A stretch of DNA of 64,000 bases from Hydractinia symbiolongicarpus. Its lineage: Eukaryota; Cnidaria; Hydrozoa; Anthoathecata; Hydractiniidae. The notes below the pieces were generated by a model, which was not told the DNA's origin, made no database searches, and worked only from the letters and a program-made list of their open reading frames with translations. A program made the position numbers and the translations under genes. Of this stretch, positions 2,565 to 64,000 are shown piece by piece (position 1 is the first letter of the stretch; each line of letters begins with the position of its first letter). The stretch lies in assembly GCF_029227915.1 (NCBI RefSeq), contig NC_079885.1:22321001-22385000 (forward strand). The letters are read 5' to 3'.

Positions 2565-3559
2565 CTAACCAAGTAAGATTTTGCGAAGGAGTCCAAACCG
2601 ATTTCTCGCAATTTGATACGAATCCCGTTTTTCTAATGAATCCTTAACAAAATTCGGATGATTTTTTGCTATGTTAAAACTATTTTCAATTCCTGCGCTG
2701 TCATCTAAATAAACACTAATCTTAATTCCATTTTCGTGCCAAAAAGCTACCAGAGGGCGAACCGCTTTTGTGAAAACGAATGGGGCAGTACTTAATCCAA
2801 AAGGCAATACTGCGAACACAAAATACTTCTTTATTCCGTCTATAACCCACGAAAAACCTATATAAGTTTGGTGTTCTTCAAACATTTCAATATGATGGTA
2901 ACCTTGTTTCAAATCAAACTTATATGCGTGACTGTTTTTTGACGCAAAAGATCTCAAAGATGTCCAATCGTGAAATTTAATGTAGTCTTTAGCTATAGAT
3001 GTTTATTAACGTATCGTAGATCTAGAATCAGTTTGTTACGACGTTTACGTTTAATTAAACCTCTACATTTTTTAAGGCTTTTCAGTGGTTCAGAAGTATA
3101 TCCATCTTTGATTAGAGATATGGCTTCATCAATTTTTTCGTCAATTTCATTGTTAAATGCCAGCTGTTTCTGGTTTGCCTTGAATTTTAAATCAGTGTTT
3201 AATTTTCTTGTTTTTGAAGGTGGCGGCGAAGGAACGGTGATTTGACGCTTCAAGTGTTCAAACTTTTTATCGAAATACGTCTTACACAAAGAAAACGTGT
3301 CGTTCACAGACATCATCTGGTTGTCATCAGCTTCATTGTCAGCACGGCTACTGCGACTTACTCGCTCGATATCCATTATTTCAACTTCTGGATCAAAAGC
3401 ATTCATAATCTCTGGACGATGTACTCTTTGTAAATTTACAGAATAATCAGACATGATCCTTCTCACAAGATTTCTATCGACGTGTGACTTGAAAACTTGA
3501 TTGAACGCCTTTAATTTACTAACCACGTGATAATTTGTTATGCAAATTATCAAGTGCAT
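2565..3559 (-). pseudogene. Reverse transcriptase of the DIRS-like element, frameshifted
   Basis: The upstream open part (2993-3559) has a charged, gag-like N-terminus and ends with KLILDLRYVNKHL, the first conserved RT block. The next part (2565-2957, another frame) has YKFDLKQGYHHIEM with the first catalytic Asp, then LPFGLSTAPFVFTK, then SVYLDDSAG with the YxDD-type active site. The frame changes between 2957 and 2993, and the downstream thumb is eroded. The family match (DIRS-type RT) rests on these blocks. No intact enzyme is encoded. Confidence 0.8.
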
Positions 3560-11940: not shown

Positions 11941-13763
<1,823 letters not shown>

Positions 13764-22579: not shown

Positions 22580-22925
22580 AATAAAGATAATCGATAAAGC
22601 CCGTGGAAAAATCCACTGAGGCAGGATAAAAATGAAAAAAAAGATCATTTGAATTTTAGGACGTCAGCAACCCATTCACCAAAAAATTTAGAACCTTATT
22701 TTCACGTTGCCTCTATTGTGGGACGTCGGCAAGCCCGTCAAAACACAAAAATACAATTTTAGAAATTTGCATACCTGTTGCCTTCATCGTATAGATCTTG
22801 AAACGCTGATCAAAAAAATGTATAGGATCGTGTATCTTTTACAAATGATTGTAAAGATATTGGATGGGATTAATTAAAGGTTTTGTGATGACGTCATCAA
22901 CCCGTCCATTTCGAAACGGATTCGG
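22580..22925. repeat. TGACGTCA-module repeat, copy 2
   Basis: Starts GATAAAGCCCGTGGAAAAAT and ends GACGTCATCAACCCGTCCATT with a following CGAAACGGATTCGG. It replaces the C-terminal coding part of four-TM copy 2. Confidence 0.65.
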
Positions 22926-23280
22926 ATTCGACAATTGACGAAAATAACAAAATCATTTCAAAGAACGTGAGATAGAAAAAGGCTTGAAATATTTTGTATT
23001 CAAACTCTAAATCTTCTTTTGTGTTTTCCCAACATTTTATGAAACTGAGTTCCTTAATTTCAGAACATGTTCCGTCTTTGAGTCTTCGAATATTATCTTT
23101 GTACTCGTTGGAGAATAATTCAATATAGAACGTCACACCACAAATCCACCATAACAGTTGCCAAACGTCCCAATAAAATTTCATTTTATAGGATCCAAAA
23201 ATACCACACAGAGGATTAAGAATCAGCAATAGATTAAGGACAACTGGACCGTACCATATTTTCATAAATGTGTAATTTGT
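22897..23280 (-). pseudogene. Four-transmembrane family copy 2, truncated at both ends
   Basis: Nearly identical to copy 3 (25938-26492) over TM2 to TM4. The N-terminus with TM1 is lost: after TTACACATTTATG the sequence jumps straight to the upstream TACAGTAATAACATTTTAAAAG block, a deletion of roughly 250 bp. At the other end the Cys-rich tail is replaced by the TGACGTCA-module repeat (near 22925). What remains is an open frame from MKIWYGPVV to FSSIV, probably non-functional. Confidence 0.75.
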
Positions 23281-23439
23281 ACAGTAATAACATTTTAAAA
23301 GGTGAACGTAACGTGGTCATTTGTATTCTTTATGTCTTATCGACTAGAACATTACCTTCACTTAAGTGTCTTTCAGGATAACGCGACAGATAAGATATTT
23401 CTGTTTATGAGACTAAACATATAGTTTTTTTTACATCAT

Positions 23440-25937: not shown

Positions 25938-26492
25938 TTATAAAGCTTGATCACCAGTTAATAATGCACCAGGTAAGTCTGTCTGCCTTTCAACATCGCT
26001 TTCACACTGTCTGCAACAACAGCAGGTAGTAATAAACCAAACAATTGACGAAAATAACACAATCATTTCAAAGAACGTGAGATAGAAAAAGGCTTGAAAT
26101 ATTCTATATTCGAACTCTAAATCTTCTTTTGTGTTTTCCCAACATTTTATGAAACTGAGTTCCTTAATTTCAGAACATGTTCCGTCTTTGAGTCTTCGAA
26201 TATTATCTTTGTACTCGTTGGAGAATAATTCAATATAGAACGTCACACCACAAATCCACCATAACAGTTGCCAAACGTCCCAATAAAATTTCATTTTATA
26301 AGATCCAAAAATACCACACAGAGGATTAAGAATCAGCAATAGATTAAGGACAACTGGACCGTACCATATTTTCATAATTGTGTAATTCTTTGAGGAGTTT
26401 TGAGGTAACCATATGTACAGACCTCCAACAATAGCTGTTGAAAAATATATAAATATTTCGAAGTAGTAGAAATACTTATTTGTCTTTAACAT
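25938..26492 (-). CDS. Four-transmembrane protein, family copy 3
   Basis: The best-preserved member, 184 residues from MLKTNKYFYYF. Predicted TM segments are at about 7-29, 44-64, 69-90 and 131-156. Loop 1 (30-43) has the possible N-glycosylation sites NSS (32) and NYT (36). Loop 2 (91-130) is charged, with Cys106 and Cys117 that could pair. After TM4 comes a run of four Cys (157-160), then RQCESD and the tail LPGALLTGDQAL shared with copy 1. With the N-terminus inside, both loops would face out. No known domain is recognised. The upstream sequence in the same frame has a stop, so the start is well constrained. The gene appears to be intronless or to have only an untranslated upstream exon. 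Confidence 0.65.
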   Translation of the reverse strand: MLKTNKYFYYFEIFIYFSTAIVGGLYIWLPQNSSKNYTIMKIWYGPVVLNLLLILNPLCGIFGSYKMKFYWDVWQLLWWICGVTFYIELFSNEYKDNIRRLKDGTCSEIKELSFIKCWENTKEDLEFEYRIFQAFFYLTFFEMIVLFSSIVWFITTCCCCRQCESDVERQTDLPGALLTGDQAL

Positions 26493-26564
26493 TTTCTTCC
26501 TTTGCAAATGCGTATATTACACTTTCTGCTCTTTTATCCTATAAAAGGAACCATTTTGTACAGT

Positions 26565-31836: not shown

Positions 31837-32403
31837 TTAAAACGCTGGATATCTCTTTGTGTAAATGCTGAGCGACTCCTTGGGTGAGTCTGTCTGTCTT
31901 TGAACGTCGCTTTCACGCTGTCTGCAACAGCAACAGGTAATGATAAACCACACAATTGACGAAAACAGCAAAATTATTTCAAAGAACGTGAGAGAGACAA
32001 AGGCTTGAAATATTTTGTATTCGAACTCTAAATCTTCTTTTGTGTTTTCCCAACATTTTATGAAACTGAGTTCGTCAATTTCATAACATCTTCCGTCTTT
32101 GAGTTTTCGAATGTTATCTTTGTACTCGGTGGAGAATAATTCAATATAGAACGTCACACCACAAATCCACCATAACAGTTGCCAAACGTCCAGACAAAAC
32201 TTTGTTTTATAACACTCAACAATACCTAGCAAAGGATTAAGAATCAGCAATAGATTAAGGAAAACTGGAGCGTTGAATTTTTTCATAAATGTGTAATTCT
32301 TTGAGGAGTTTTGAGGTAACCATATGTACACACCTCCAACAATAGCTGTTGAAACATATATAAATATTTCAAAGTAGTAGAAATACTTTTTTGCCTTTAA
32401 CAT
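31837..32403 (-). CDS. Four-transmembrane protein, family copy 4
   Basis: 188 residues from MLKAKKYFYYF. It has the same four hydrophobic segments and the NSS/NYT sites in loop 1. In loop 2 the two Cys lie in GRCYEI and FIKCWEN. After TM4 comes the run TCCCCRQRESD. The tail differs from copies 1 and 3: after RQTDSP it diverges into KESLSIYTKRYPAF instead of the LLTGDQAL ending. Between TM1 and TM3 there are several changes (KKFNAPVFLNL, VECYKTKFCLD), so this is the most diverged of the intact copies. Role unknown. Confidence 0.6.
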   Translation of the reverse strand: MLKAKKYFYYFEIFIYVSTAIVGGVYIWLPQNSSKNYTFMKKFNAPVFLNLLLILNPLLGIVECYKTKFCLDVWQLLWWICGVTFYIELFSTEYKDNIRKLKDGRCYEIDELSFIKCWENTKEDLEFEYKIFQAFVSLTFFEIILLFSSIVWFIITCCCCRQRESDVQRQTDSPKESLSIYTKRYPAF

Positions 32404-32474
32404 TTTCTTCTTTTGCAACTGCGTATTAAATTTTTTGTTTTTTTTATCCTATAAAAGGAACCATTTTGTACAGT

Positions 32475-38903: not shown

Positions 38904-39665
38904 TTACAACTTCGACTTAGAGTGTCGTAACAAATCCAAATATAATTGATACATCTCTGTTGATAAATTCTTTACATTTTCCATAGCGTCTTCGAAATAC
39001 GCCCCTCCGTACATAATATTCGCAGCAACGCATAGCAAACAAAACGTAAAACCAAAAGTTTCGTATTTTTGATTAGTGGCAACACCAGGTCGTGAAACAC
39101 ACGGCTGCCTCCATCCCAATTTCATTTTCTTGATTTCAGGTTTTCCACAAAACACTTTCAGAGGGACGGTAAACACATCCATAACTTCATGATTGTTCAA
39201 CTTCGCGTAAAAACTGTTCTTAACTAACGCGAATATCGGGTGGACTACGTGAATCTTCTTTCTTCTTGTCGACAACATGCTCACGAACTCAAATAAAACA
39301 TTGATATTACCCGCATGCAATCCGATTTCTTCCCATGCTTCTCGGGTTGCCGTTTCGAAAACACTTTCGTCTTGTCTGTCAAATTTCCCGCCAGGCAAGC
39401 AAACCTCGCCATGTAGTAACGAAATCTTTGAATGTCTAACCGTCAACAAGACTTCCAATTCATTATCGCGGTTAAACACTAAAGGCACCAGCACAGCTGA
39501 TTTTTGTACTTTTTTAACCGGGTATTTTTCATAAGCAGCTTTGCGAGCAAACTCTGTAAATCTCGCTCTGTTTTTATCCGCGGCGAATCGTAACTTTTCT
39601 AGCCTCTCCAATTCCGATTGCTGCTGCTCGAAAACCTGGATTAAGACAGTCTTCATCACGTGCAC
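38904..39665 (-). CDS. NUDT7: Peroxisomal coenzyme A diphosphatase (NUDT7-like Nudix hydrolase)
   Basis: 253 residues in one exon. This family cleaves CoA and acyl-CoA into 3',5'-ADP and (acyl-)phosphopantetheine, so it controls the peroxisomal CoA pool. Visible evidence: the CoA-pyrophosphatase signature at about 73-96 (LLTVRHSKISLLHGEVCLPG and on to GGKFD), overlapping a Nudix box whose metal-binding core is REAWEEIGL (108-116). The C-terminus is SKL, a textbook PTS1 signal, which favours NUDT7 over the mitochondrial relative NUDT8. Residues 10-35 look helical and charged. The next Met at position 4 is an alternative start. Length fits the family. Small 31-bp-like repeats (GCAGGTCT..TACAGG) lie just upstream at 39685-39750. 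Confidence 0.9.
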   Translation of the reverse strand: MHVMKTVLIQVFEQQQSELERLEKLRFAADKNRARFTEFARKAAYEKYPVKKVQKSAVLVPLVFNRDNELEVLLTVRHSKISLLHGEVCLPGGKFDRQDESVFETATREAWEEIGLHAGNINVLFEFVSMLSTRRKKIHVVHPIFALVKNSFYAKLNNHEVMDVFTVPLKVFCGKPEIKKMKLGWRQPCVSRPGVATNQKYETFGFTFCLLCVAANIMYGGAYFEDAMENVKNLSTEMYQLYLDLLRHSKSKL

Positions 39666-41071
39666 GCTACGTTACACAATACACGCAGGTCTCCTATTAC
39701 AGGTGAGCAGGTCTTTTATACAAGTGAGTCAGCAGGTCTTTAATACAGGATACACAATATTTACTATTAGTCTGTAGTTTCAGAAGTAAAAAGTACATAA
39801 AACAGAACACATAGGCAAAACCTTACACATTAGAAATGCTTTCTACTACAAGGAACAAACATCTGCAACAAGCTAGGATGAACAAATGCAGAAGAAAAAT
39901 TTCATAACATACTGCGTAGCTACATTATTTAAAATTATATACAGGTACATCAAATGCGTATGGATGTTTTTTACCATCCATTGCAAAAGTTTTAGGAAAA
40001 GAAGAGCAAATTCAAGCTAAAGGAATTAAACATTTGAAACTCCAATACCTCTACACAAAACCCCAAACAAATTAGTCACGCCTAGAACCCTTATTTTTTT
40101 ATTCGAAACATTTTTTATCTAGCGAAAAATTTTACGTTAAAAAACTATTTTACCTGATTTAAAGTTTTTTTTACGTAATTCAAAATTCTTGAGAATTTTA
40201 ATATCACAACAAACGCGATAAAAACTTAGCACATCAACTTAACTAAGTAATCTTCGTTTAAAGTAGATAGACAACGCTAAAAAAAACTAAATTGTTTACA
40301 CAGATATCAGATGTAATTATTAATATTATTGAAATAAAATGCTTATGCAGAAGGTCAGAGTGCGCTTAAACATACCTCATTTTTCGAATTTTTGCGTTCA
40401 CCTACGAACCTTTTTATTTTACGACAATGTTTGCGATTCAGATACCGCTCTGATATTTTAACGACACTTCATTTTGTGATTTTAGACATAATTCACAAAC
40501 ATTTTAGTCCCACCTTTTTAGTACATCGCAAACATTTTAGTCGCATTCTTTCATGTAAGCATTAATTTACGACTCTACAGAAGTCGAAATGACGTCGATA
40601 ATAGCCAATATCAACTGAGAGCTGGCGTAAGAAAGTCAACATAACCGTAAAATTGATCGCCATAGCACAAACATAAATAAAAAACTTCAAATCGATGAAA
40701 AAATAATTATGATAGCTTATATATAGAAAACTTGCAGAAACACAAAAAACATAGCTAAGTTGGCGCTACAGTTATTAAGCCACCCATATGACCGTCAACA
40801 AACACAAATTTTCTTCACATATTAACTTTTCGCAGAAAGTTACTTTAAAGCTTTGCTTTTGCGAGATACAATCGACAAAACTAAAGCATTTTTGAAAGAA
40901 ACAGTTAAATCTTTATTATAAAAAAAAGGCTTAGGCGATTCTCATATTTCACACAATTAGCGAAAATCCAATCCCATGGGAATTTAGCACTTAACATAGG
41001 TATCAGACTCTGTAACTTGGTAGCATTGAATCGTCTATGTTAAGCTTAAGACTCTTAAAGCGAAAATCATG
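39666..41071. other. Intergenic between NUDT7-like and NIT1 genes
   Basis: A+T-rich. It holds the NIT1 poly(A) signal at 40912-40917 and presumably the NUDT7-like promoter near 39670-39800. No further gene seen. Confidence 0.5.
40912..40917 (-). terminator. Poly(A) signal AATAAA of NIT1
   Basis: AATAAA on the minus strand about 155 nt downstream of the NIT1 stop codon. Confidence 0.55.
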
Positions 41072-41959
41072 TCACATGTACATAAAACGTTTGTTATACA
41101 AGTCGTAACGTCGATGTTGTGACACTGGCATCCTTGTCCTCACTTTCTCAAGTAAATCTAAATCAATTTCCGTCATTGCAAATGTGTTTCCTTCACTGCA
41201 TTCACACACGACTGTTCCCCATGGATCAACAATCAACGCATGACCATAGCTCTCTCTTTTCGAATTATGTTTCCCTGTTTGCGCAGCCGCGATGACGTAG
41301 CACTGATTTTCAACTGCGCGTGCGCGTAGCAACAAATGCCAATGCGCCATTCCTGTCGGTACCGTAAAAGCGGATGGGTATGTTAGTATATCTGCTCCTT
41401 GATGTCTTTGGACAAGGGAAAGTTCTGGAAATCGTAAATCATAACATATTTGCAATCCGATTTTACCAATGGGCGTGTCTACAGGGGGGAGAATTGTGCA
41501 CCCTTTCTTCGTGTATGAACTTTCCAGTAAAGAATTCTCGCCTGTGTTAACATCAAATAAATGCGTTTTCCGGTACACACACACTACTTCACCTTTGGCG
41601 TTCAAAACTACATGAGAAATATAAATTTTCTCTTCAGTATCGCACTTCTCGTGGAAACCACCCAAGGACAGCCACACTTGGTGTTTCGACGCAATGTTTT
41701 TAAACCTTTCGATAGTTGGTCCATCTAATTTTTCAGCCATTTTAACAGACTCGTCTTTGTTACTCCCAACATAATCAAAACATTCTGGTAAAAACACCAT
41801 ACGCGCACCGCCTTTGGCTGCTTGACTTATCAAGTCATAGCAAATAGTTGCGTTCTTGTCTCTATCGTTCGTTGCGTTCATTTGACATACAGCAGCCCAA
41901 ACTTTTCGATGAGACATAGCTCGAACTTGCGAGACAGCTACACGTATTATACTTTTCAT
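41072..41959 (-). CDS. NIT1: NIT1, deaminated glutathione amidase (nitrilase superfamily)
   Basis: 295 residues, one exon. The enzyme hydrolyses deaminated glutathione, a transaminase side product, to alpha-ketoglutarate and Cys-Gly, a metabolite-repair reaction in cytosol and mitochondria. The nitrilase catalytic triad is visible: Glu59 in VFLPECFDY, Lys131 in VYRKTHLFD and Cys172 in LQICYDLRFPE. GHALIVDPWG and the C-terminal RRYDLY are further family marks. The first 14 residues before MSHRKVW are basic/hydrophobic and could act as a mitochondrial presequence, with Met15 giving a cytosolic form, as described for mammalian NIT1. In flies and worms the homologue is fused to Fhit; here the ORF ends without an Fhit domain and none is seen nearby. 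Confidence 0.93.
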   Translation of the reverse strand: MKSIIRVAVSQVRAMSHRKVWAAVCQMNATNDRDKNATICYDLISQAAKGGARMVFLPECFDYVGSNKDESVKMAEKLDGPTIERFKNIASKHQVWLSLGGFHEKCDTEEKIYISHVVLNAKGEVVCVYRKTHLFDVNTGENSLLESSYTKKGCTILPPVDTPIGKIGLQICYDLRFPELSLVQRHQGADILTYPSAFTVPTGMAHWHLLLRARAVENQCYVIAAAQTGKHNSKRESYGHALIVDPWGTVVCECSEGNTFAMTEIDLDLLEKVRTRMPVSQHRRYDLYNKRFMYM

Positions 41960-43119
41960 ATGATCGTGTAAAGTCTATAATTAACAGCTGCAATTTAGTT
42001 ACATCTAAAGGCCGCTTCACACGAAAGCGTTTTAGGTTACAGCTCTATTGTTTCAAAGTAAGCGGACATTACGCTTAATCTATGATTCGTCTCAACTACC
42101 AAAGATGCAGATACATAGGCGTTGCAGACGAAAAGATGTAATAAACATGCCCGGATGCTAAACGTTGAGAGCTGCCCTCTACTGGAAGCGACCTTTAAAG
42201 GTATATACTCACAAACTGAAACTGTACGTTAGAAAGTATTTTAAACAGATTGTTCGGTGACATGCTTTACAGAAGTGTTAGATACCAAATTTTTTTTTTT
42301 ACATTGTATATGGTAGGGAATAAGAGGTTTGACCTTTACTTTGACGTTTAACGCACGGTATTCGATTTGCGAGCCATTACGAAGACAAACATCGTGTTAA
42401 AAAAAAACACTATAAAAATGGTATCTAGAATCTACAGTTAGGGATTAATTTTGCTGCTTATCAGAAAAAATATTTTCATTTCCAACAAGTTTTTAGACCA
42501 TAAGAATACTGTATAAAAAAACGCAAAATTAAACGAAAACGCAAATTAAAACAAAAACAAAAACGCAAAATAAGATACTTAAAAATACGTTATGTTGAAA
42601 ATACACTAGATTTAAAAAAATTATTCGGAAGAGTTACTAAATTCACCAACGGTTGTGCTCGAAAATTTTGCGAGAAAAAAAAACTCGTCCTACAAAAATT
42701 GACCAGACCTTACAGTAACGAAAATTTGTCCGATGAAGTAACATCACACAAAACTCCAACGATAATTACAACAACAACATGGAGTGAGTAAATTTTTTAT
42801 ATACATATAAAATTTTTCACATATGAGTGGTCTACATAACAACAAAAACACAAATGCCAGCCGTTTACATAAAATCACTTCAACTACACTCATTCGCACA
42901 TGCGCACTTTTTTAAAATTATAGTTTTTCTATAAAAAAATGTGCTTGATCAACATTATACAACACTTGCTATACGCATGCGCGGATAGTATTCACCGTTT
43001 TGAAGTTCAAACTTAGGCACACGATATTACATGTCCATAAACACTCAACTCTGTTATACTTGTGTAAAATACGCTTCACTGAATTCACAACACACACACA
43101 CATTAGTAAAAGTGCTCTC
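41960..43119. other. Intergenic between NIT1 and AFG3L2
   Basis: Contains the NIT1 upstream region and an A-rich tract with repeated AAAACGCAAA words (about 42518-42575). No gene seen. Confidence 0.5.
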
Positions 43120-58959
<15,840 letters not shown>

Positions 58960-59516: not shown

Positions 59517-59588
59517 CTCCCGCACCGGGAATCGAACCCGGGCCGCCTGGGTGAAAACCAGAAATCCTAACCACTAGACCATGCGGGA
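59517..59588 (-). tRNA. trnE-UUC: tRNA-Glu (anticodon UUC)
   Basis: A 72-nt cloverleaf without intron. The acceptor stem TCCCGCA/TGCGGGA pairs fully, with discriminator G. The D-arm region GGTCTAGTGGTTAGGA holds the A box. The anticodon arm TCTGG-TTTTCAC-CCAGG gives anticodon TTC. The T-arm CCCGG-GTTCGAT-CCCGG holds the B box GGTTCGATTCC. It closely resembles other metazoan nuclear tRNA-Glu genes. It lies between the divergent AFG3L2 and MsrA genes. The first anticodon-stem pair is T:G. Confidence 0.97.
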
Positions 59589-60016: not shown

Positions 60017-62941
60017 ATGAATTTAAGTTCGTTGCGTACGTACATTGGTGGTTCATTTTTCAGATTATTTGGAATATTCTCATATTTGCCTGCAACGAGA
60101 CCAGCAGATAACATTATGGATCTATCTCCCGCTGAAACCAAGTAAGTATATAACTTTTAGCCAGCAAGGTGGTGGCTATCCCTAACCCTAACTCTAACCC
60201 TTTGTTTTCCTTTTATTCATAAAATTTGTGAACAAAAGTAAGGCCTCCGTTTACCCCAGAATCTACTAGCTGGCCTTAATAACAAGTTTCAATGTTGATG
60301 TTGATGTTGATTGGGGGGAATACTCACACATCTGTTGAAACAACCTGAAAAATGGCAGGCAATAAAATGCAGCATTTGGTGGATAGATAGATAGATGTGC
60401 ATATTTTACATGGCTAGCCTCACTAATATCGAGGGATATACCCTGTCTATTACTTCAGGGTCCTAGAGTATTTAATGATTTTGTGTTATTCAAAATTGTT
60501 TATCACAGATGACTTCTATGAACTGATTTCAGCGCAAACAAAAATTGTATGCTGATCAATATATTGATAATAAAGCAAATCCTGATACTGCAACATTAGC
60601 TATATGTTGCCTGAAAACTGAACTGAACTGCGAAATGTGTGGAACATTTTAATTTGGGAGCCTAAAATTATCATTGTGACGCATATATGTCCCGCGGGCA
60701 CATTTGCAGTGACGTATATGTACGTCCCGTGAGATCAATAATTATTTAAGGCATAAGTATAAAAAAACGGTGTGATCTTATAAAATGCTTGTAATTTACT
60801 AAAACTTTATATTGATACATTAATGTAAACATTTTTACAAAGTTTAGGTGATTAAAAAAAATGATTTTTTTCCTATATATACTTGTGCCTAACTCTATAC
60901 GATTCTTAGTTTTTTCTCCTAAAAGAGATCCCGAACCTAAATTCTCCTAAAATTGCAAAATTTTAAAGTTGTGTCCACCCTGTTGAAACATTTCTTAAAG
61001 AAATATTGCAATGTTTAGCCTGTAGTAAGGTTTTTTTAAGCAGCCTTCATTTGTGTATTGATCAACATCATTTTGTGTTTAGGGTAGCTACTTTTGCTAT
61101 GAGCTGATTTTGGTTTCCCGAAGCACAATTTGGTAGTGCTTTGGGAGTGGTTAGAACTAAAGTTGGTTATACTGGTGGAAAAACAAAGTTTCCAACGTAT
61201 CACAATTTGTATGTATTATTATTAATATTCATTATTATTTTTCATTACCAGATTTGTGTTGGTTTCTAATAAAGAAATTTTTGTAATTTTAACATTATTT
61301 ACACACAATTCTTCAAAGTAGTCACACAACTGTATGTTGAACTTTTGCCTGATTCTTTGGTACACTTCTAAATAAAAACGCTAAAAGCGGCTTTGTAAAT
61401 TTCAAATTATAGCTTTACCGTTACAGATATTATCATCTATATAATATTTAATTCAAGTTAAGCCTAAATTAATAACATTATATGTTTCAATGTGGTTCCA
61501 TCACATTAAGTTATAAATCTCCACAAGTCAGAACTTTGTTTTCGCAACTAATAAATCATAATAGGCGGTGGCCATTTTCTTACCTCACCATTATGGCTAT
61601 ATTTTTTTTAGAGCTAATCACACAGAAACTCTTCAGTTGGAATATAATCCAAAAGTGACTGATTACAGAAAACTGTTGGATATATTCTGGACAAACCATA
61701 ACCCAGCTGCAATCAACAGACCACAGTACATGTCTGCCATTTTTTACCATGACAATGAACAAAAAGACCTGGCAGAAAAGACCATGGCAGAACATCAGAA
61801 GACACTTGCTCGAAAAATACAAACACAGATTTTACCAGCAGATGTTTTTTATGATGCTGAAGGGTGAGTTTTGTTGTTCTGATTGAAAGCAAAGGTAAAC
61901 CAACCAATTTCGGTTTCCTGATGTTGTGACATAGTTTTATTAAGTAGGGTTTGATCCAAAAATTCTGGACTATAGCGGTTTGGGTCCCATATGGAATTGG
62001 TATAGGATATCCTGTAGGGAAAATTGAGTTTGCATGTCTTCTCTTATAAGAGTTAATAAATGCATTATATTTCTGTTGCATTGGAAAATTTAAGTTAAAA
62101 TTTTATTGTGACGTAGCCTTATATTGTTTAAATGTTTGCGTACAACCATTCAGGACAAGAATGTGTGATAATTAAGCCTGACCTGCAATGGCAAGACTAG
62201 GAAATGAAGATATCGTTTTTGCAAAAATAAGACTCACAAATATAGAGGGATCTACCCTGTCTATTTCCAGGATGGGACATGGCTTAAATTGGTAGTCCTA
62301 GAGTATATTATACTCGCCCATATTGAATCGTCGCCAAGGAATTGAACCCCAATCTACTGCACAAAGTACGAGAGTTGTAACCACTAAGCTACGGCGTTAC
62401 AAAACTTGTCCAATTAAAGCATTACAATCTTTCATCTAACAAACCTTTATAAACCTTTCCAGCTTCTAACTTGCCCTTTCCTTAAGTCAGTTTTGAAATT
62501 CACTTCAGTGACTGATAAATAATATAACCCTCTTGCTAGACATATTTGGATATGTGTCTTTTTAAAGTCTTCTATTTCCCTTTAGTTCCCGTTAATAGCA
62601 TATTCCAATTGATTATGGAGTGATTGGAAGTGAATACAAAAAATTGTTGCAAAATTTTTACTTTTTTCCGGATGATTGTATATTTTCACAATTCTAGATA
62701 CCATCAGAAATATTTGCTTCGACGTCATACGACAATCTTTAAAAGTTTAAATTTATCGGAGCAAGAAATAATCAAATCCACAGTCGCTGCAAGATTGAAC
62801 GGTTACCTCAATGGTCATGGAAGCATTAAAAGTTTAATGGAAGAACTTCCAAGTTGGCAATTGAACGAGAAGCAAAACAATGCTATTATAAGTGTGGCCG
62901 AAAAAAAGAATTGCGCTGGAGGCTATTGCGGTGTTCGATAA
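60017..62941 (+). CDS. MSRA: Peptide methionine sulfoxide reductase A, predicted selenoprotein
   Basis: Reduces methionine-S-sulfoxide, free or in proteins. Exons 60017-60141, 61083-61208, 61612-61863 and 62698-62941 have GT-AG borders, and every intron is in phase 2. The product is 248 residues. In exon 2 the MsrA active site GCFWxxE reads S-(TGA)-FWFPE: the in-frame TGA at 61105-61107 is codon 50, exactly the catalytic Cys, with Glu55 in the right place. Then come GVVRTKVGYTGG, PTYHNL, HTETLQLEYNP (exon 3), AEGYHQKYL (exon 4) and a C-terminal CAGGYC (Cys240, Cys245), candidates for resolving Cys. No other stop interrupts the frame, and a SECIS-like hairpin lies downstream. I therefore read TGA as selenocysteine. 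The basic N-terminus (Arg7, Arg16, Arg27) could be mitochondrial. Alternative: a nonsense allele or pseudogene, unlikely given the rest. Confidence 0.92.
60180..60200. repeat. Short interstitial telomere-like repeat (CCCTAA)n
   Basis: CCCTAACCCTAACTCTAACC in MsrA intron 1, matching the metazoan telomere motif for about three and a half units. Confidence 0.75.
60382..60475 (-). mobile_element. 5'-truncated SINE copy in MsrA intron 1
   Basis: Minus strand: AAATACTCTAGGACCCTGAA, AATAGACAGGGTATATCCCT, GAGGCTAGCCATGTAAAATA, TGCACATCTATCTATC. It is the 3' half of the same SINE family with its (ATCT)n tail; the tRNA-like head is missing. Confidence 0.8.
62231..62403 (-). mobile_element. tRNA-derived SINE with intact pol III boxes, in MsrA intron 3
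   Basis: Minus strand, about 170 bp: GTAGCTTAGTGGTTACAACT (A box) and GGGGTTCAATTCC (B box), then ATATACTCTAGGACTACCAA, AAGCCATGTCCCATCCTGGA, AATAGACAGGGTAGATCCCT. The head is tRNA-like but does not fold into a true tRNA gene. This copy has the clearest family structure in the window. Confidence 0.85.
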
Positions 62942-63349: not shown

Positions 63350-63420
63350 GTGATATTTACAAGTTTATGATATAGAGATACTGAAAACACGAAAAAGGTA
63401 TCTTTATTGATGTATGTAAA
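63350..63420 (+). promoter_or_regulatory. Candidate SECIS element in the MsrA 3' UTR
   Basis: SECIS hairpins recruit SBP2 and the Sec elongation factor so that UGA is read as selenocysteine. Here the non-Watson-Crick core is ATGA (63367-63370) against TGAT (63408-63411). Helix 2 is ATAGAGATAC (63372-63381) against GTATCTTTAT (63398-63407), ten consecutive pairs with one G-U. The apical loop (63382-63397) holds AAAA at 63384-63387, about 13 nt after ATGA, as required for the unpaired AA. Below the core TTTACA (about 63355-63360) can pair with TGTAAA (63415-63420) as helix 1. It lies 425 nt after the MsrA stop, a normal distance. A form I SECIS is likely, judged from manual folding only. Confidence 0.78.
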
Positions 63421-64000
63421 ATGCTACTTGAAATATATCATGAAAATTCAAAATTATTAGCTTTGAGCTTTCTATTTAGAACTTCAACGTGTAAGTGGGA
63501 CCACGAGAAAGAAAAAGAAAACAGCTGTAGTTAGAAACTACCGATATGTTACGCTTAGATTGTTTGCTAGATCGCTGTGAAATTAGGTCTTATGCTTCTT
63601 AAAAAATTTTGATGGCAAGGTTTGTATAATTGAAAACCCGATTTTACGAAACAAGTAGTTACCAGCGTATACTACACGGGATGTATTAGTAAAAATGGTG
63701 TCCTGTCTGCAAAATACAATTTTGATCAGCTGATCCTGATGTTCAACCTCGTCCCCAGGGTCTTGGGGACGAGGTTGCCTGATGTCATGTTTTTTTTTAC
63801 TGTGGTGCAAGTATTAGTGGATGATTACCTGTAATGGTGACAGATATTAAAAATCGAATTAAGGTTTGGCCATTATTTAAACTTTTATAGTCGTGCTACG
63901 GAAACACGAAATTGAAAAAATCTTGTTATTAACCCTCGCCCCTCTAATTTCAGAAAAATCATTTTCTTTTAAATTTTTTACGTACCGATAGTTTACGAGT
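63421..64000. other. Downstream of MsrA, no further gene seen
   Basis: Holds the rest of the possible MsrA 3' UTR. No AATAAA is seen; ATTAAA at 63846-63851 is a weak candidate poly(A) signal. A mini-palindrome lies at 63744-63777. Confidence 0.45.
63744..63777. mobile_element. 34-bp palindrome flanked by an 8-bp direct repeat
   Basis: CAACCTCGTCCCCA and its exact complement TGGGGACGAGGTTG with a 6-nt loop. CCTGATGT occurs directly on both sides (63735-63742 and 63778-63785), looking like an 8-bp target duplication. The arm sequence is related to the hairpins at 27641 and 34455. Confidence 0.7.

What the first reader, a model, noticed from the sequence alone, without database searches (positions are those of the whole stretch)
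61083..61208. MsrA with an in-frame TGA exactly at the catalytic cysteine
Seen: four exons join in the same phase into 248 codons, and the only internal stop is TGA at 61105-61107. It falls on the Cys of the GCFWxxE active site, with FW and Glu intact around it. Known: Cys-to-Sec replacement at this very residue exists in some MsrA proteins (for example in Chlamydomonas) and raises catalytic rate, but most animal MsrA enzymes use Cys. Inference: this animal encodes a selenoprotein MsrA.
Basis: partly seen in the sequence, partly recalled or inferred. Interest (0 to 1): 0.93.

Follow-up and report, generated by a model that had tools for sequence, protein, structure and literature searches.

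The report
Selenoprotein MsrA in a hydrozoan-like animal
The gene looks like a genuine methionine-repair enzyme that uses selenocysteine, read from a stop codon, at its active site; this kind of enzyme is already known from many marine invertebrates, so it is a good but ordinary example.

Summary
Four exons with GT..AG borders and phase-2 introns join into 248 sense codons plus a stop; the only internal stop is TGA at 61105-61107, on MsrA's catalytic column. The residue before it is Ser, not Gly. A SECIS-like element lies at 63367-63411: ATGA/GA core, 11-pair helix, AAAA in the loop. It is the window's only plus-strand pattern match; 6 of 3000 shuffles of the 3' region do as well. Rfam finds no SECIS there. 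Of 120 listed homologues, 49 have Trp on that column (best read as TGA under another code), 16 Cys, 55 no letter; four named animal records begin just after it. The genome has SPS2 with an in-frame TGA and tRNA-Sec. Sec-MsrA is already published for 5 of 6 marine invertebrates, including a sea anemone (PMC3473315): a new member of a known kind. Side finding: a tandem array of 37 tRNA-Sec-like genes.

The parts
60017..60141 (+). exon 1: start codon, putative N-terminal leader, first codons of the enzyme
   Evidence: donor GTAAGT; start codon chosen as an ATG of the open frame, not proven
61083..61208 (+). exon 2: active-site exon (VATFAMSUFWFPEAQFGSALGVVRTKVGYTGGKTKFPTYHNL)
61105..61107 (+). 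in-frame TGA, codon 50, read as selenocysteine (catalytic residue of MsrA)
   Evidence: the reading as Sec is inferred
61612..61863 (+). exon 3: rest of the PMSR domain; one match (itself) at E <= 0.001 in the own genome
62698..62941 (+). exon 4: end of PMSR domain, MsrA_helical domain, stop TAA
62912..62914 (+). Cys240, first of the only two cysteines in the protein (C-terminal CX4C)
62927..62929 (+). Cys245, second cysteine of CX4C; candidate resolving Cys (inferred)
63367..63411 (+). SECIS-like core: ATGAT, 11-pair helix, AAAA in the loop, TGAT
   Evidence: not listed by Rfam

Best explanation
A nuclear selenoprotein MsrA gene of a cnidarian, probably a hydrozoan. Shown: intact four-exon gene model, one TGA at the catalytic codon, SECIS-like hairpin in the 3' region, SPS2 with its own in-frame TGA and tRNA-Sec in the same genome. 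Inferred: relatives have TGA on the same column; the SECIS recruits SBP2 and eEFSec with Sec-tRNA so that UGA 50 is read as Sec; Sec50 attacks the sulfoxide of Met-S-oxide, the oxidised selenium is resolved by a C-terminal cysteine (Cys245 or Cys240, the only cysteines of the protein) or directly by a thiol reductant, and thioredoxin regenerates the enzyme.
For: Gene model and single internal TGA; PMSR and MsrA_helical domains, the latter described by Pfam as a selenoprotein MsrA domain; best PDB matches are MsrA, E 1.6e-50; SECIS pattern found once on the plus strand of 64 kb, 6 of 3000 dinucleotide shuffles of the 1059-base 3' region reach its 11 pairs, and only one match with 11 pairs in 233,006 strand-bases of this genome; 49 Trp, 16 Cys, 55 no letter on the column among the 120 listed of 794 hits, four named animal records starting directly after it; tree places the window protein in a 9-row clade (97/92) of 5 Trp rows and 4 without a letter there, no Cys row; SPS2 with in-frame TGA in LKG*GCKVPQQ; tRNA-Sec with anticodon TCA.
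Against: No Rfam SECIS family listed in the 3' region. Overall folding energy modest (z -1.72, 14 of 200 shuffles fold as well). The pattern scan also gives a 10-pair match on the minus strand inside the gene (61559-61517), so near-matches arise by chance; 18 of 3000 shuffles reach 10 pairs. The same scan finds no good element 3' of SPS2, only weak ones when relaxed, so it is not validated on a second gene of this genome. No transcript data. DNA behind the Trp-bearing relatives was not seen. SecS searches did not complete; SBP2, eEFSec and PSTK were not searched.
Confidence: 0.95

Rival explanations
1. Sequencing error or rare allele: the functional gene has TGC or TGT (Cys) and the TGA is an artefact.
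For: One base is enough to turn TGC or TGT into TGA; no reads were available.
Against: SECIS-like element in the right place; the nearest relatives with a letter there carry Trp, not Cys, in the same MS-x-FWFPEAQ context; Ser before the column goes with Trp in 44 of 49 rows, Gly with Cys in 15 of 16.
Confidence: 0.02
2. Pseudogene or dying copy: MsrA inactivated by a nonsense change.
For: In-frame stop; PMC3473315 reports an incomplete Capitella MsrA copy without SECIS.
Against: No other stop, frameshift or broken splice site in 747 nt; the seven best hits are 55-69% identical over 75-97% of the query; SECIS-like element present; exon 3 has one match in the own genome, itself.
Confidence: 0.02
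3. TGA is read through as another residue, or acts as a regulated stop giving a 49-residue product, without Sec.
For: Programmed stop readthrough exists in animals (recalled).
Against: The stop sits on the catalytic residue; a SECIS-like element and Sec machinery genes are present.
Confidence: 0.01

Closest known systems
Sec-containing MsrA of marine invertebrates (Nematostella, Amphimedon, Trichoplax, Capitella, Branchiostoma; PMC3473315, passages)
   Same: Published as MsrA selenoproteins; partial Nematostella, Amphimedon and Trichoplax records found here begin FWFPEAQ just after the Sec position
   Different: Here a C-terminal CX4C pair is present; the Nematostella, Lytechinus and Amphimedon records found have no Cys near their C-terminal end (records marked partial, completeness at that end not checked)
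Chlamydomonas Sec-MsrA (Kim et al. 2006; known here from a citation in PMC4244043 and recall, paper not held)
   Same: Sec in MsrA; higher activity of the Sec form is recalled
   Different: Alga; not compared by sequence here
MsrA of PDB 4lwj/4lwk (from an Alkaliphilus/Clostridium species, recalled)
   Same: Best PDB match over residues 41-237 of the window protein
   Different: Bacterial by recall; Sec there would need a bacterial SECIS (recalled)
Cys-type MsrA such as PDB 1fva and 1ff3
   Same: PMSR catalytic domain (E about 1e-20)
   Different: Catalytic Cys (recalled); the match ends at residue 176, before the MsrA_helical region

Membership tests
MsrA (PMSR) | PMSR domain above the curated score | tested here: met
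   131.6 bits against a cut-off of 23.7; NCBIfam msrA 115.6 against 108.1
MsrA (PMSR) | catalytic residue followed by FW | tested here: met
   TGA codon 50 followed by FW; aligned to the Cys of GCFW in PDB MsrA chains
MsrA (PMSR) | reduces methionine-S-sulfoxide | not testable with these tools
   needs an enzyme assay
eukaryotic selenoprotein | in-frame TGA at a position that is Cys or Sec in homologues | tested here: met
   49 Trp (read as TGA, DNA not seen), 16 Cys, 55 no letter among 120 listed homologues
eukaryotic selenoprotein | SECIS in the 3' region: AUGA core, helix, AA in the apical loop, GA on the 3' side | tested here: met
   63367-63411 by pattern and by folding
eukaryotic selenoprotein | SECIS recognised by Rfam covariance models (a sensitivity check, not a defining feature) | tested here: not met
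   no SECIS family listed at E <= 5 or <= 10; none at the SPS2 locus either. That SECIS families are among the 4227 is recalled, not checked
eukaryotic selenoprotein | SPS2 and tRNA-Sec in the genome | tested here: met
   SPS exons with E 3.0e-29 and 2.4e-15, each below the whole-protein cut-off, TGA in LKG*GCKVPQQ; tRNA-Sec over the gathering score
eukaryotic selenoprotein | SecS, SBP2, eEFSec and PSTK in the genome | not tested
   SecS (PF05889) requested, never answered; the others not searched
eukaryotic selenoprotein | Sec incorporated in the protein | not testable with these tools
   needs 75Se labelling or mass spectrometry

The most novel reading that the evidence does not exclude
The animal's Sec decoding is unusually heavily equipped: beside a single tRNA-Sec on contig C14, contig C12 carries a ~35-kb tandem array of 37 tRNA-Sec-like genes (period about 968 bp), 16 with all counted stems paired and G73 (15 of these with anticodon TCA), most with a conserved TATA-like box, and with the tRNA part less variable than the spacer. 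If transcribed, this would be far more tRNA-Sec genes than the at most four well-supported copies (eleven raw predictions in a diatom) of the Secmarker survey, feeding clients such as this MsrA.
Probability: 0.4. Interest if true: 0.5.

Novelty: new member of a known kind. Interest (0 to 1): 0.3.

Why it matters
It adds an apparently hydrozoan case to the Sec-MsrA family and is a further example of a gene that ordinary gene callers would truncate. The Sec-plus-CX4C tail makes a simple test of how an animal Sec-MsrA is regenerated. The tRNA-Sec array, if active, would make gene dosage of the Sec tRNA testable in an animal, where one gene is assumed to be the rule (PMC5330540, passages).

Tried and rejected
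Exon borders typed a few bases off gave a scrambled translation; corrected. The SECIS scan used the wrong pairing register: it listed 2 plus-strand and 5 minus-strand rows elsewhere and missed the element; corrected. Rfam for SECIS: none. A DNA pattern over the Sec site in viral contigs (1 match) and genome contigs (3 matches): none of the 4 encodes MsrA in that frame. SECIS 3' of SPS2: nothing with the strict scan, one weak hairpin by folding and two weak matches with a relaxed scan. The pairing table used a shifted anticodon stem and shows anticodon TTC and 17 'fully paired'; one search replaces it. Genome searches for MsrA paralogues (PF01625), SecS (PF05889) and SECIS (RF00031) did not complete. 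No structure prediction was run.

Full report
Observation. Four exons (60017-60141, 61083-61208, 61612-61863, 62698-62941, plus strand) have GT..AG borders, all introns are phase 2, and the joined frame has 248 sense codons and a TAA stop with one internal stop, TGA at 61105-61107 (one search had borders a few bases off). The protein matches PMSR (E 3.8e-38) and MsrA_helical (E 2.2e-9), NCBIfam msrA above its cut-off, and MsrA chains in the PDB over residues 41-237 (E 1.6e-50). Residue 50 falls on the Cys of GCFW in those chains. The preceding residue is Ser, not Gly. Twenty-nine other codons are one change from TGA, so a random nonsense change would rarely hit just this codon.

SECIS. Downstream of the stop the window holds a hairpin with ATGAT, an 11-pair helix, AAAA at the 5' side of the loop, and TGAT, at 63367-63411, 425 bases after the stop. 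The helix forms in each stretch folded; the flanks pair differently from stretch to stretch, one of them (63355-63430) giving a lower helix. My pattern scan finds it as the only plus-strand match in 64,000 bases; the minus strand has two with 8 or more pairs, one of them with 10 at 61559-61517; of 3000 shuffles of the 1059-base 3' region, 84 reach 8 pairs, 39 reach 9, 18 reach 10 and 6 reach its 11. In 233,006 strand-bases of this genome (window plus six loci, both strands) the scan gives 3 matches with 9 or more pairs, 2 with 10 or more and 1 with 11. Against it: no Rfam SECIS hit and only modest folding energy over 116 nt (z -1.72, 14 of 200 shuffles as good). The same scan finds no good element 3' of SPS2 in this genome, and Rfam lists none there either, so neither method is calibrated on a second gene here.

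Relatives. The search gave 794 proteins at E <= 0.001, of which 120 were listed and all 120 were aligned. On the Sec column 49 have Trp, 16 Cys and 55 no letter, the last mostly because the row begins further downstream. Trp in place of the catalytic residue is best read as TGA translated with a code in which it is Trp; the DNA was not seen, so this is inference. The residue before is Ser in 44 of 49 Trp rows and Gly in 15 of 16 Cys rows. Four named records, of Lytechinus, Nematostella, Amphimedon and Trichoplax, start with FWFPEAQ directly after the column. A tree of 66 rows (42 Trp; 16 Cys; 8 in no group, namely the window and seven partial rows that I chose) puts the window protein in a clade of 9 with support 97/92: five Trp rows and four rows without a letter there, no Cys row. 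Seven of the 49 Trp rows were dropped by my length limits (195-280), and 48 of the 55 rows without a letter were not used. Sec and Cys labels need three changes on the tree.

Machinery. The window lies in a 480.9-Mb genome of 76 contigs at C11:22321001-22385000; exon 3 of the MsrA has one match at E <= 0.001 there, itself. SPS is on C14: two exons match TIGR00476 (109.6 and 64.1 bits, each below the whole-protein cut-off of 125), and upstream lies LKG*GCKVPQQ with the stop being TGA at 12243391, the pattern of SPS2 (recalled). tRNA-Sec is present. Searches for MsrA paralogues and SecS did not complete, so these remain open. A neighbouring nitrilase-like ORF has an unnamed 96% match; the best match named as a cnidarian is Hydra vulgaris (62%), second among named records by E-value after a nematode record of 43% identity. 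A hydrozoan is likely; the species is not shown.

Mechanism. Most likely UGA 50 is decoded as Sec through the 3' SECIS. MsrA chemistry as summarised in PMC13188914 (passages): the catalytic residue attacks the sulfoxide, an oxidised intermediate forms, a resolving Cys makes a bond with it, thioredoxin reduces it. The window protein has only two cysteines, Cys240 and Cys245, in a C-terminal CX4C; 9 of the 120 listed relatives end in the same CX4C arrangement, and P0002 and P0012 of the window's clade, and P0008 (not in the tree), keep a single Cys near the end. I infer a Sec50-Cys245 (or Cys240) resolving step; the partial Nematostella, Lytechinus and Amphimedon records have no such tail.

Known or new. 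Sec-MsrA in animals is published: PMC3473315 lists MsrA selenoproteins in 5 of 6 marine invertebrates, two in Nematostella (passages); PMC3828610 in planarians (passages); PMC4244043 in centipede, Daphnia, Ixodes and Branchiostoma, with a Sec-containing MsrA inferred for their common ancestor (passages). Algae have it too (PMC7539508, passages). I saw no paper on a hydrozoan case in the listings (20 of 914 shown), which cover open-licence papers only. Verdict: new member of a known kind.

Side finding. Contig C12:19440535-19475820 (minus) holds a tandem array of tRNA-Sec-like genes: 36 over the gathering score (only 53 of 26,406 first-look candidates were scored, so a lower bound) plus one at 19441503. 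ARAGORN, run on the same stretch. Spacing of the 36 is 957-970 bp apart from three intervals of 1870, 1871 and 495. Of 37, 36 have G73, 33 have GGATAAAA at -33 to -26, and 16 have all counted stems paired plus G73, one of these with anticodon TCG; another copy has TAA, and the 87-nt copy was not scored. So 21 of 37 fail that strict test. Mean pairwise difference is 0.033 in the tRNA and 0.091 in the spacer, the lowest 87-column spacer window being 0.050, in 32 units of the common length. The lone C14 gene differs from the array majority at 8 sites, two pairs of which are double changes that keep a base pair (4/83 and 16/23); similarity between the two loci is confined to the tRNA and a few bases beside it. 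The Secmarker survey reports at most four well-supported copies in a eukaryote and eleven raw predictions in a diatom (PMC5330540, passages). [quoted passage not shown] Sec is not named in the passages seen. The listings (20 of 47 shown; 20 of 36; 3 of 4; 19 of 19) showed me no report of such an array. Whether it is transcribed is unknown.

Noticed in passing
own genome G000:C12:19440535-19475820 (L017-L020) and C14:3902976-3903061 (L021): Tandem array of 37 tRNA-Sec-like genes, period about 968 bp, plus a lone tRNA-Sec elsewhere; tRNA part less variable than spacer, TATA-like box conserved.
   Followed up: partly
L017-L020, just 3' of the array tRNA in the majority unit: A stretch resembling a decayed 3' half of tRNA-Sec (GATTCAATTCCACCTTCAGGG) follows the tRNA in the majority unit.
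   Followed up: no
own genome G000:C14:7625230-7840966: Twelve tRNA-Sec-like hits below the gathering score, some 623 bases apart, perhaps an array of another tRNA.
   Followed up: no
own genome G000:C14:12243391 (L008:1792-1794): SPS2-like gene with in-frame TGA in LKG*GCKVPQQ; no clear SECIS found 3' of it.
   Followed up: partly
59517-59588 (-): tRNA-Glu (TTC) gene just upstream of the MsrA gene.
   Followed up: no
63738-63788: Inverted repeat AACCTCGTCCCCA..TGGGGACGAGGTT in the MsrA 3' flank; weak mir-7445 match far below the gathering score.
   Followed up: no
22900-23316, 25941-26516, 31840-32448 (-): Three ORFs with shared stretches (such as WYGPVVLNLL, YFYYFEIFIY), probably duplicates; the one scanned (25941-26516) has no Pfam match.
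   Followed up: no
12500-13127: Long 4-base simple repeat giving RQTD/LSVC frames on the two strands.
   Followed up: no
41075-41974, 38907-39671, 51896-52273, 2568-3002 (-): ORFs with a carbon-nitrogen hydrolase, a NUDIX, an FtsH_ext (AFG3-like by recall) and a reverse transcriptase domain.
   Followed up: no
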